In this document: piece after piece, positions 25,668 through 50,723 of the stretch
Layout: each line of letters starts with the position of its first letter
Numbering within the stretch: the first letter of the stretch is position 1
Assembly: GCA_022571845.1 (NCBI GenBank)
Contig: JACZXB010000010.1
Location: forward strand, 62,001-126,000
From: Candidatus Zixiibacteriota bacterium
Lineage (GTDB): Bacteria; Zixibacteria; MSB-5A5; GN15; FEB-12
Direction: 5' to 3'
Length of the DNA: 64,000 bases
Translations under genes and position numbers: made by a program
Notes under the pieces: generated by a model
Seen by the model: the letters and a program-made list of their open reading frames with translations, nothing else
Told to the model about the DNA's origin: nothing
The model's database searches: none

Positions 25668-26264
25668 TCAACCTGCTGCAAAAGTCTTCAAAAAATAGCC
25701 TAGTAGTGAGGTATCCTGGCCTAATTCGGTATGAAAGGAGCTGGCCAGAACGTTGTTTTGAGAAACTAATACAGGCTCGTTTTTGAACTCTCCTAGTACT
25801 TTCACGCTTTCGCCTATTCTAGTGATTTTGGGTGCCCTGATAAAAGTGGCTGCCATTTGCGATTTACCGTTACCCAGATTAATATTTATCTCATCTTCAA
25901 ACGAAAAGACCTGCCGGCCATAGCCGTTACGCAGAACATCAATATCTAGCAGTCCCAGCGGCTCTACCTCGGACTGGTTATCTTCGATTTTTTTCGATAG
26001 CAGTATCAGACCAGCACAGATGCCAAAAACAGGCTTACTTCTGCAAAAATTTATTAACGGCTGACGCAGCTCGAACCTGTTTATCAGCTTGTCCATAGTG
26101 GTAGTCTCCCCGCCAGGGATTATCAGGGCATCCAGATTTTTGAGGTCGCTCTCAAGACGGACTTCTACAGCTTTTACAGCGAGAGACTGCAGCTGCTTTT
26201 TGTGCGCCTCATAATCCCCTTGCAGCGCCAAAACACCGACAGAAATATTCTTTGAGAGAGTCAT
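25668..26264 (-). CDS. pdxT: Pyridoxal 5'-phosphate synthase glutaminase subunit PdxT
   Basis: Glutaminase of the ribose-5-phosphate-dependent PLP synthase; it feeds ammonia to PdxS. The class I amidotransferase triad is Cys83 (FGICAGLILL), His178 and Glu180 (SSFHTELGQD), and the family motif GGETTTM is at 51-57. It is 198 residues, normal length. In most genomes it directly follows pdxS. Here 1.27 kb containing two foreign-looking genes lies between pdxS (27531-28415) and pdxT, so pdxT must be read through that module or have its own promoter in the 72-base gap before it. Confidence 0.96.
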   Translation of the reverse strand: MTLSKNISVGVLALQGDYEAHKKQLQSLAVKAVEVRLESDLKNLDALIIPGGETTTMDKLINRFELRQPLINFCRSKPVFGICAGLILLSKKIEDNQSEVEPLGLLDIDVLRNGYGRQVFSFEDEININLGNGKSQMAATFIRAPKITRIGESVKVLGEFKNEPVLVSQNNVLASSFHTELGQDTSLLGYFLKTFAAG

Positions 26265-26336
26265 AGTTTCTTAAACAGTTGAAGAAAGATATTGTGCCGT
26301 AATTTCATATTGAAAGCTATGAACACTACTCTATTC

Positions 26337-26801
26337 CTAACCCGGTGCAGGATATATTTTAAGCTTTAGCTGAGGAGATAGATAAGGAGATGTTAAAATT
26401 AGTTCTTTTATATCATCCATAATTGGTTCGGGCATTTTTTGAATATATTCCAATTTGCCTCCAAATGTGTGAGTAATGTATTTTTCTTCGAACCAAGCAT
26501 ATTCTCTTGGTCTAACAGGAGCAATTTCAATCGCAGTTTCTTTTGGAAAGCAGTCGACAGTACCTTCGGGCATAATATAAGATCTGTCAAATCTTAATGG
26601 GTTTGTCCTAATTCTCAATACATTTGATGTTGGGAGAAAATAGTGACAGAATTCATTTTCATCTCTGGGATTCAAAACTAATATAAATTTGGGCTTGGAT
26701 GTCTTATCTTCAAAAACGAATCGCTCGAATCGAAAAATTGCACCATGAACAAAATGATTTTGAAAGACTTTCCTTTGATCCGCCTCAGGGATATCAATCA
26801 T
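26337..26801 (-). CDS. Candidate toxin of a Panacea-type toxin-antitoxin pair (function unknown)
   Basis: A 154-residue soluble protein of unrecognised family. It begins with a segment (GAIFRFERFVF...KPKFILVLNP) reminiscent of the SH3-like start of PemK/MazF proteins, but the match is weak and I do not claim that fold. It follows the DUF4065-like gene by 15 bases on the same strand, the gene order seen in Panacea antitoxin-toxin operons where the partner toxin varies. The base composition is visibly more AT-rich than the flanking pdx genes. Alternatives are an unrelated accessory protein or a phage-derived gene. Confidence 0.5.
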   Translation of the reverse strand: MIDIPEADQRKVFQNHFVHGAIFRFERFVFEDKTSKPKFILVLNPRDENEFCHYFLPTSNVLRIRTNPLRFDRSYIMPEGTVDCFPKETAIEIAPVRPREYAWFEEKYITHTFGGKLEYIQKMPEPIMDDIKELILTSPYLSPQLKLKIYPAPG

Positions 26802-26816
26802 TAATAGATTTCATAT

Positions 26817-27359
26817 CTATAGATCATCGAAAAAACGGTCGTCTTCTAACTCCGATAGCATTGCTTCATAAGCATGTTTATTCTTTTTAGGGTCGTCCAT
26901 GAAAAAGAGCTTATAATCTATTTGTCTATTCTTTCTGCTTCTTGTCCAAGCACAATCTTTATGAGACAGATTGGACAATTCAATTCCTGAAAGATGCCCA
27001 AATTCACTTAAAACGGACTCAATGCTTGTCAATTCTTTTTCAGAGAAAACATCCATATTCGGCTCTTCATTAGCTTTGATAATATTGTATTTTCTGCTAA
27101 AGTCAGGTTTTTCATAGAATTTGCAAGACCCATCATCACTAGTGGGAAACTGAGTCATCGCGCGATAGGAATTAGAAGGCACAGGCCCTAAGTCCATTTT
27201 ATAATAAATATCCCCTAGGACTGGCCTACCGGTACTTAGCAGGCTAAATTTATCTATATAATAGAGCAACTTGACTGCTTTCAATCTGTCAACGTCATCA
27301 AATCTTTGACAGATAATCTGCAAAAGAGCTTCAAATTTTTCTTCATTAAATCTAAACAT
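26817..27359 (-). CDS. Panacea-domain (DUF4065/SocA-like) protein, probable antitoxin
   Basis: 180 residues with the DUF4065 signature: a helical start, then DRLKAVKLLYYIDKFSLL, GRPVLGDIYYKMDLGPVPSN and a long C-terminal extension. The family is known from proteolytic-adaptor-type antitoxins (SocA) and from Panacea antitoxins, which neutralise many unrelated toxins. It precedes a small unknown gene by 15 bases. A perfect 15-base palindrome lies 12 bases before its ATG, consistent with autoregulation, and AGGA serves as ribosome site. The AT-rich composition and the position between pdxS and pdxT suggest acquisition by transfer. Confidence 0.75.
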   Translation of the reverse strand: MFRFNEEKFEALLQIICQRFDDVDRLKAVKLLYYIDKFSLLSTGRPVLGDIYYKMDLGPVPSNSYRAMTQFPTSDDGSCKFYEKPDFSRKYNIIKANEEPNMDVFSEKELTSIESVLSEFGHLSGIELSNLSHKDCAWTRSRKNRQIDYKLFFMDDPKKNKHAYEAMLSELEDDRFFDDL

Positions 27360-27371
27360 AAAATCCTAAAC

Positions 27372-27386
27372 ACCTATAACATAGGT
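27372..27386. promoter_or_regulatory. 15-bp palindrome upstream of the toxin-antitoxin-like pair
   Basis: ACCTAT-AAC-ATAGGT, a perfect 6-base inverted repeat with a 3-base centre, placed between the ATG at 27359 and the 3' end of pdxS. It is a likely operator for autoregulation; alternatively a small hairpin in the leader. Confidence 0.4.
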
Positions 27387-27530
27387 AATCTTTCCCGTAG
27401 GTTTATTACATCACAAATAACAATTCTATTATCGGTTTAGAAAAGTTAATTGCACAATAATTATAACAAATTGTTGTCCAAAAAGTTAGAAAAATGTCGC
27501 GATAAATCTATCATCATAAATACCAACAAC

Positions 27531-28415
27531 TTACCGCGTATGCAGCAGATGCTCGTCAGCTATAGATGCCACCTGGATGCCTTTCATGGCCTGGCCCAGT
27601 CCACGGGAGCTTTCGGTAATCTGGCGGGCGTTTTTGTAATGGGTGGTGGCATCGACTATCGCTTTGGCGCGTTTTTCGGGATTGTCGGCTTTAAAAATAC
27701 CAGAGCCGACAAAAACAGCCTCGGCGCCAAGCTGCATACACAAAGCTGCGTCGGCCGGAGTGGCTACACCGCCTGCGGCAAAATTCGGTACCGGCAGGTT
27801 GCCGGTTTTGGAAACAATCTTTATCAGCTCAATTGAGACCTGGTGCTCTTTGGCAGCTCCAAAAAGTTCTTCGTCGGACATAATAGTCAGAGCTTTCATG
27901 ACAGAATTAATTTCACGTAAATGTTTGACCGCTTCGGAGACATCACCCGTACCGGCTTCCCCTTTGGTCCGAATCATAGCAGCGCCTTCGGATATTCTTC
28001 TAAGTGCCTCACCCAAGTTCCGGCAGCCGCAGACAAAAGGAACTTTGAACTGCCACTTATTAACGTGGTACATGTTATCTGCCGGCGTCAGGACCTCGGA
28101 CTCATCAACAAAGTCAACTTCCAGCGCTTCCAGCACCTGTGCCTCGACAAAATGCCCGATACGGCACTTGGCCATGACCGGAATAGTGACCGAGCGTTTA
28201 ATATCTTCAATCACATCCGGGTCAGCCATACGCGCCACACCGCCGTCGGCACGGATATCCGAGGGCACCCTCTCTAAAGCCATAACAGCGCAAGCGCCGG
28301 CATCTTCGGCGATTTTGGCCTGCTCGGCATTGATCACGTCCATTATTACGCCGCCTTTGAGCATTTCTGCCAGACCAACTTTCAGTTTGTACTGTTTATC
28401 ATCAAATTTCAGCAT
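27531..28415 (-). CDS. pdxS: Pyridoxal 5'-phosphate synthase lyase subunit PdxS
   Basis: Synthase subunit of the deoxyxylulose-independent vitamin B6 pathway, making PLP from ribose 5-phosphate, glyceraldehyde 3-phosphate and ammonia. The catalytic Asp26 ([13 protein letters not shown]) and Lys83 ([15 protein letters not shown]) are present. It is 294 residues and full length. It lies just after the terminator of the Rrf2 gene, so it should have its own promoter in the short gap at 28416-28462. Its glutaminase partner pdxT is displaced 1.27 kb downstream. Confidence 0.97.
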
Positions 28416-49751: not shown

Positions 49752-50723
49752 ATGCCAACGCTTGAAAATTTGAAAGATGAACTATTCGTAAAGCTGGACA
49801 AAAATCCGCTGTTGAGGGAATTCTTCAAAGACATGCTTGTAGAAAGAGTTAAGCATGAGAGTTGGTTAGAAAATGACTTAGTGTACGCTGTATTGAATGA
49901 CAGGACTGAAACAGTAGCACATATGTTAGATAGTGTCAGAAAGCATAATCCCAAATTAGTCAATGAGCTGGCTGAATCACTTGCATACAAGAAAAAGGAA
50001 ATAGACGATAAAATCGTCGATGGTTTGGCTGAGCTAAATGGACTATGCTATATCATAAAGCAGGGATACTCTGATATCAAAAAAATCAAAGTACAACCTA
50101 AGAAGAAACTAAAGACGCCCGATTTCGTAGCCAAGAGAGGAGAAAAATTCACTCTTTTTGAAGTGAAAAACCTAAGAGCACCAGAAATTTTTCACACTAT
50201 CGTGAAGAAAATGACCCTATTCGCATTTCTAAAACCACAAAGATATCAATTCGGACTTGAATTAACGATTGATCCTCACTTGATACCGCATGAAAAACTC
50301 CAAGATTTGAACAGTAAAATAATTTCAACATTTGTTGAAGGCATTGATAATGCTTTATCAAATCGTTTGACTTCGTTTGAGGTTGAGTACGACAATTTGG
50401 CTGAAGAGAAAACCATTCATCGAACCCTCCGCTGCAACATCGACTACGACAGACCACATTATATCTCGTGTCACGGTGGTTCTCCTGTTCGAATGTCAAA
50501 ACTATTCAAAAAAACTTCCAATGGTATTTGGAATGCAATTGAGAAATTCAACGACTTTGACACAGATAATAAACACGATAAAGTCATCTTAATTAATTGG
50601 ACACGACTTTCGGGATGTGACCATTTCAACGATAAACATTCAAGGTCTTACAAGAAGTACCTCAATCGAGTTAATATCCTCTTTAAAAGCAAGAATGAAA
50701 ATTTGCGAATCGAACTTCTCTAA
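49752..50723 (+). CDS. PD-(D/E)XK nuclease-like protein of unknown function
   Basis: 323-residue protein with the core nuclease motif TPDFVAKRGEKFTLFEVKN: the Asp of TPDF and the Glu-x-Lys of FEVKN are spaced as in restriction-type endonucleases. An N-terminal helical region (1-95) precedes it, and the C-terminal half carries many aromatic and charged residues without a motif I know. No methyltransferase, helicase or specificity gene lies beside it. The composition is clearly more AT-rich than the lpx genes and the ribosome site is weak, both suggesting acquisition. It could be a lone defence nuclease, a mobile-element nuclease or a repair enzyme. Confidence 0.6.
   Translation: MPTLENLKDELFVKLDKNPLLREFFKDMLVERVKHESWLENDLVYAVLNDRTETVAHMLDSVRKHNPKLVNELAESLAYKKKEIDDKIVDGLAELNGLCYIIKQGYSDIKKIKVQPKKKLKTPDFVAKRGEKFTLFEVKNLRAPEIFHTIVKKMTLFAFLKPQRYQFGLELTIDPHLIPHEKLQDLNSKIISTFVEGIDNALSNRLTSFEVEYDNLAEEKTIHRTLRCNIDYDRPHYISCHGGSPVRMSKLFKKTSNGIWNAIEKFNDFDTDNKHDKVILINWTRLSGCDHFNDKHSRSYKKYLNRVNILFKSKNENLRIELL

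What the first reader, a model, noticed from the sequence alone, without database searches (positions are those of the whole stretch)
26337..27386. Panacea/DUF4065 toxin-antitoxin-like module inserted between pdxS and pdxT
PdxS and PdxT are normally adjacent and co-transcribed. Here an AT-rich pair lies between them: a DUF4065-type protein followed after 15 bases by a 154-residue protein of unrecognised family. A palindrome stands before the pair. Panacea antitoxins neutralise diverse toxins, so the second gene may be a new toxin type. Its insertion within a vitamin B6 locus could also link its expression to pdxT.
Basis: partly seen in the sequence, partly recalled or inferred. Interest (0 to 1): 0.7.

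Follow-up and report, generated by a model that had tools for sequence, protein, structure and literature searches.

The report
Panacea–MazF-like toxin pair in pdxST
Two small genes wedged between the vitamin B6 genes pdxS and pdxT of a Zixibacteria genome look like a toxin-antitoxin pair: a Panacea antitoxin and a distant, previously unassignable cousin of the RNA-cutting toxin MazF, swapped in where close relatives carry other cargo.

Summary
pdxS (27531-28415), a Panacea/DUF4065 ORF (26817-27359), a 154-aa ORF (26337-26801) and pdxT (25668-26264) lie in that order on the minus strand. The 154-aa protein matches no curated family alone. It is not an orphan, though: iterated profiles recover relatives across phyla, and all 75 found in 89 Panacea loci sit directly downstream of Panacea. 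AlphaFold2 (pLDDT 95) gives a MazF/Kid-type barrel (VIA Z 10.1), and profile-profile comparison with true MazF gives 95% probability (unrelated control 0.2%). The MazF catalytic Arg is replaced by a near-invariant Lys; a Ser/Thr is kept. Likeliest reading: a PanAT type II toxin-antitoxin module with a diverged MazF-fold toxin, probably an RNase (inferred, untested). PanA plus MazF-like toxin is already published, so it is not a new toxin fold. The module is a replacement: both same-genus genomes carry tcmP plus a DUF5131 gene at the same breakpoints. In this family the pdxS-pdxT interval is a variable insertion site (19 of 22 genomes >800 bp; 0 of 60 outside). The palindrome is within chance. 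A link to pdxT regulation has no evidence beyond shared strand and no terminator-like site.

The parts
26817..27359 (-). PanA: 180-aa stand-alone Panacea (SocA_Panacea, PF13274) protein, the presumed antitoxin
   Evidence: Pfam E 1.1e-21; only Panacea gene in the genome
26337..26801 (-). PanT: 154-aa MazF/Kid-fold protein, the presumed toxin
   Evidence: AF2 pLDDT 95.3; VIA Z 10.1-8.3 to MazF/Kid; hhalign 94.7% against MazF; homologues always follow Panacea
26299..27520 (.). Replaced segment: sequence not shared with the two same-genus genomes
   Evidence: blastn breakpoints at about 26298 and 27521-27530; the relatives carry tcmP + DUF5131 there
27372..27386 (.). Palindrome ACCTATaacATAGGT just upstream of the PanA start; not above chance
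27531..28415 (-). pdxS (SOR/SNZ), upstream flank
   Evidence: Pfam E 4e-107
25668..26264 (-). pdxT (SNO glutaminase), downstream flank
   Evidence: Pfam E 9.7e-52

Best explanation
A type II toxin-antitoxin module of the PanAT kind. PanA (first gene) binds and blocks PanT (second gene). PanT is a MazF/Kid-fold protein that, when freed, most likely cuts RNA and stops translation. The module was swapped into the pdxS-pdxT interval, an interval that in this Zixibacteria family holds changing cargo. Shown here: order, homology, fold, conserved partnership, breakpoints, variable site. Inferred: toxicity, neutralisation, RNase activity, role in defence or maintenance.
For: PanA: PF13274 far above cut-off. 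PanT homologues from Zixibacteria, Omnitrophota, Acidobacteriota, Bacteroidota, Nitrospinota, Proteobacteria and viral contigs, all directly after Panacea. Fold: pLDDT 95.3; Foldseek top PDB hits MazF-mt1 and MazF-mt3, best E 2.5e-3; VIA rows 1-48 are MazF/Kid-type toxins, Z 10.1-8.3; viral hits include an endoribonuclease and PemK/MazF proteins. Profile-profile against 12 MazF sequences 94.7%, E 5.6e-8; negative control against Panacea 0.2%. K38 aligns with MazF catalytic R29, T58/S59 with T52/T53; K38 is Lys in 37 of 40, position 59 is Ser/Thr in 40 of 40. R29 and T52 matter for MazF cutting (PMC10893535). A natural-frame read-through of the two genes, folded with 20 read-through relatives and 23 single proteins, gives pLDDT 92.9 and pTM 0.90, as expected if the two proteins dock. 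Precedent: PanA neutralises two predicted MazF-like PanTs in E. coli (PMC8832971). Related copies lie beside type I restriction genes (G117) and phage genes (G007).
Against: No toxicity or neutralisation data. MazF's catalytic Arg is Lys and the conserved Pro after it is Phe/Tyr; P0001 itself fails the PF02452 model. The CcdB gyrase poison has the same fold (4elz, Z 8.3). The read-through model is a covalent fusion with a 6-residue linker, so its pTM is only indirect evidence of binding, and no coordinates were at hand to measure an interface.
Confidence: 0.78

Rival explanations
1. PanAT module whose MazF/CcdB-fold toxin is not an RNase: it poisons gyrase as CcdB does, or hits another target.
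For: CcdB shares the fold and appears in the lists; the catalytic Arg is replaced by Lys in nearly all members.
Against: MazF rows outrank CcdB (Z 10.1 against 8.3) and the profile match is to MazF (no CcdB profile was compared); a basic residue and a Ser/Thr are kept at the MazF active-site positions.
Confidence: 0.14
2. Proteolytic-adaptor (type VI, SocAB-like) module: PanA delivers the partner to ClpXP.
For: SocA of Caulobacter is a Panacea protein.
Against: PanA scores 28 bits against a cut-off of 190 for the SocA equivalog; Kurata et al. found that other PanAs work without ClpXP or Lon; the read-through model suggests docking.
Confidence: 0.04
3. The pair regulates pdxT or vitamin B6 synthesis and is not a toxin-antitoxin module.
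For: Same strand between pdxS and pdxT; no terminator-like site between PanT and pdxT in the scan.
Against: Of the four intact Zixibacteria copies compared (G083, G055, G018, G019) only G019's is at pdx; the relatives' interval carries unrelated cargo or almost nothing; no DNA-binding domain was found in PanA.
Confidence: 0.03

Closest known systems
PanAT modules with MazF/PemK-like toxins (PanA-PanT of Pseudomonas moraviensis and Bifidobacterium ruminantium; Kurata et al. 2022, PMC8832971)
   Same: Two-gene module with a Panacea antitoxin; toxin with no curated domain hit but MazF/PemK-like by sensitive comparison
   Different: Organism group, a near-invariant Lys at the MazF Arg position, location inside pdxST; not tested in the laboratory. 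Sequence comparison with those two toxins was not made here
MazEF / Kid-Kis (PemIK)
   Same: Toxin fold; basic residue and Ser/Thr at the active-site columns
   Different: Antitoxin is Panacea, not MazE/Kis; toxin too diverged for PF02452; Arg replaced by Lys
SocAB of Caulobacter (type VI)
   Same: Antitoxin domain (Panacea)
   Different: PanA far below the SocA equivalog cut-off; partner has the MazF fold by prediction; SocB was not compared
NCBIfam NF045891 (Mbov_0400 family ICE protein of mycoplasmas)
   Same: Five members of the PanT family match it weakly (best 6.4e-6, below its cut-off)
   Different: No function is named in that model; P0001 itself does not match

Membership tests
PanAT toxin-antitoxin module | One gene encodes a Panacea (PF13274) domain | tested here: met
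   78.2 bits against cut-off 25.7
PanAT toxin-antitoxin module | Two-gene architecture, 100 nt apart or less, conserved across species | tested here: met
   15 nt here; 75 of 75 relatives directly downstream of Panacea in several phyla
PanAT toxin-antitoxin module | Second gene toxic and rescued by the first | not testable with these tools
   Needs expression in a laboratory strain
PanAT toxin-antitoxin module | The two proteins form a complex | tested here: inconclusive
   Read-through model pTM 0.90, but a fused construct and no coordinates to inspect
MazF/PemK (PF02452) toxin | Match to the Pfam model above cut-off | tested here: not met
   No PF02452 hit for P0001; two of 40 relatives match, best 6.5e-4; one distant Panacea-linked member (G101) does pass at 45 bits
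MazF/PemK (PF02452) toxin | MazF/Kid fold | tested here: met
   Z 10.1, 111 residues, rmsd 3.6 (7bxy); rows 1-48 MazF/Kid-type; hhalign 94.7%
MazF/PemK (PF02452) toxin | Catalytic Arg (R29) and Thr (T52) | tested here: not met
   Arg column is Lys (K38; Lys in 37 of 40); Thr column is T58 here but T 12, N 26, S 2 of 40 in the family, next residue always Ser/Thr
SocA equivalog (type VI) | NF047745 above cut-off | tested here: not met
   28.1 bits against 190
CcdB gyrase poison | Same fold and gyrase-binding residues | tested here: inconclusive
   4elz Z 8.3; gyrase-binding residues not examined

The most novel reading that the evidence does not exclude
In one Zixibacteria family the pdxS-pdxT interval is a dedicated site where exchangeable defence or toxin modules (PanAT, TcmP plus the DUF5131 radical-SAM-like gene, DUF3800 and others) are swapped inside a core metabolic gene pair, and the PanT there is a MazF-fold enzyme that uses Lys where MazF uses Arg.
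Probability: 0.35. Interest if true: 0.5.

Novelty: new member of a known kind. Interest (0 to 1): 0.35.

Why it matters
It assigns a fold and a likely function to a Panacea-linked protein family that curated libraries miss, shows that the family runs through several phyla and some viral contigs, and points to an insertion site between two vitamin B6 genes, not found described in the open papers searched, whose cargo can be compared genome by genome.

Tried and rejected
Single-sequence searches of genome contigs, viral contigs, plasmids and phages with the 154-aa protein gave nothing; an alignment search of viral contigs gave nothing; relatives came only through whole-genome search and through Panacea. 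PDB sequence search with the family profile gave only chance-level hits. The palindrome as an operator was rejected as within chance and not conserved. Trees of PanA and PanT disagree on whether the two pdx-located copies (G000, G019) are sisters, so one versus two insertions is unresolved. Weak NCBIfam hits to retron proteins were taken as chance: they did not recur in a partial re-scan. No similar DNA or close relative was found on plasmids. One call with out-of-frame coordinates failed.

Full report
Observation. On the minus strand the window reads pdxS (27531-28415), a 171-base gap, a 180-aa ORF (26817-27359), 15 bases, a 154-aa ORF (26337-26801), 72 bases, pdxT (25668-26264), then an ORF that looks like lipA by its translation. 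pdxS, pdxT and the Panacea ORF are confirmed by Pfam. The 154-aa ORF has no curated family in Pfam, PHROGs, PADLOC or NCBIfam and no sequence match in the PDB. The genome holds one copy of each. The two ORFs have the lowest GC of 46 in the window. The palindrome exists but is expected in about a quarter of shuffled gaps and is not shared by the four related loci.

Relatives. A whole-genome search of the 132 genomes of the class found five relatives of the 154-aa protein, one of them decayed (G085, four stop codons). In the four intact ones (27-37% identity) it follows a Panacea gene directly. A profile added two more, again after Panacea. Two of these genomes carry public titles that read Candidatus Zixiibacteriota (L052, L053). 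Panacea loci near PanA were then fetched from all species (79 loci; Omnitrophota, Acidobacteriota, Bacteroidota, Nitrospinota, desulfo-bacteria, Alphaproteobacteria and others) and from viral contigs (10). Iterated HMM searches of all 4638 ORFs there gave 75 relatives (E below 1e-3); 67 lie within -40 to +200 nt downstream of Panacea on the same strand, and the other 8 are also the next gene but with a far-upstream start codon chosen by the ORF caller, so that the overlap exceeds 40 nt. That position was not used in the HMM search, so it is an independent check on profile drift. In about 10 Prevotellaceae-type loci Panacea is followed instead by another small protein that reads like RelE/ParE by eye, which fits the partner swapping described by Kurata et al..

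Fold. AlphaFold2 with 40 family members gives pLDDT 95.3, pTM 0.89. Foldseek against the PDB: best E 2.5e-3, MazF-mt1 and MazF-mt3 on top. VIA-align: Z 10.1 (7bxy, 111 residues, rmsd 3.6; 5hk0), and the first 48 rows are MazF/Kid-type toxins (a few titled only as toxin or endoribonuclease) before a CcdB row at Z 8.3. Viral library: an endoribonuclease and PemK/MazF proteins. Profile-profile comparison with an alignment of 12 MazF proteins (E. coli MazF, Zixibacteria-class and environmental plasmid sequences): probability 94.7%, E 5.6e-8; the Panacea alignment as control 0.2%. In that alignment G20 matches MazF G10, K38 matches R29 and T58-S59 match T52-T53. R29 and T52 are needed for cutting in Symbiobacterium MazF (PMC10893535), and the equivalent R25/T48 in B. 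subtilis MazF (PMC8634880). Here the Arg is Lys (37 of 40; otherwise His or Arg) and position 59 is always Ser or Thr. So it resembles MazF in fold and probable active site, but membership in PF02452 is not met.

Does PanA bind PanT? Only indirect evidence. The two ORFs are in one frame, so reading the stops as residues gives a natural read-through polypeptide; folded with 20 read-through pairs and 23 single proteins it gave pLDDT 92.9 and pTM 0.90, which would be unusual for two domains that do not dock. The PanA half matches a chain of the M. tuberculosis DarTG complex at Z 9.3, rmsd 4.8 (7yk3_B); I do not lean on this.

The site. Against the two same-genus genomes (G032, G033; aligned flanks 88-93% identical) homology stops about 10 bases after pdxS and about 34 bases before pdxT; the segment 26299-27520 is not shared, while they carry tcmP (TIGR04474) and a DUF5131 gene there (in G032 the contigs break between pdxS and tcmP). 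So the pair is a replacement, not an ancestral arrangement. DUF5131 is absent from the whole window genome. Across the class, of genomes with pdxS and pdxT near each other on one contig, all 60 outside the family have gaps of 303 bases or less; in the family 19 of 22 exceed 800 bases. Contents vary: DUF5131 in 12 of these intervals and beside pdxS or pdxT in 5 more genomes, with TcmP, DUF3800 or PanAT (G019) in front of it in several; a 181-aa gene on the other strand (G057-G059), a 215-aa ORF (G055), a GGDEF regulator (G050), or almost nothing (G011, G022, G052). The literature search found no paper on this site (open library only).

Mechanism and verdict. Best reading: a PanAT type II module with a diverged MazF-fold toxin, swapped into a variable interval. 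Shown: gene order, homology, fold, conserved partnership, breakpoints, variable site. Inferred: toxicity, neutralisation, RNA cutting, role in phage defence or element maintenance. Since PanA with MazF/PemK-like toxins is published, with two validated cases (PMC8832971) and MazF/PemK as a recurrent fold of the wider network (PMC10440598), this is a new member of a known kind. Regulation of pdxT by the pair is possible from shared strand only. Sample limits: most genomes are draft assemblies, so cargo counts are lower bounds.

Noticed in passing
window 26265-27530; loci L011, L141-L180: The pdxS-pdxT interval is a variable insertion site in one Zixibacteria family (19 of 22 gaps over 800 bp; 0 of 60 outside), with DUF5131 as the commonest cargo.
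   Followed up: partly
L141 995-2622; L147, L148, L154, L160: TcmP (TIGR04474) paired with a DUF5131 radical-SAM-like gene between pdxS and pdxT; function unknown, mobile by its pattern.
   Followed up: partly
L087, L096, L103, L105, L110, L114, L117, L118, L119, L130 (gene after Panacea): In Prevotellaceae-type genomes the same Panacea clade is followed by a small RelE/ParE-looking protein instead of the MazF-fold one.
   Followed up: no
L081 6497-6913, L089 1467-1940: PanT relatives weakly match NCBIfam NF045891 (Mbov_0400 family ICE protein), suggesting that this unnamed mycoplasma ICE protein may be a Panacea-linked MazF-fold toxin.
   Followed up: no
L012 (G085): A decayed copy of the PanT gene with four internal stop codons on a short contig.
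   Followed up: no
L022 328-6937 and 8033-9075 (G117); L021 (G007): Distant PanAT copies beside a type I restriction-modification operon (G117) and beside a phage terminase gene (G007).
   Followed up: partly
window 49752-50723: 323-aa ORF, third most AT-rich in the window (GC 0.364); not examined.
   Followed up: no
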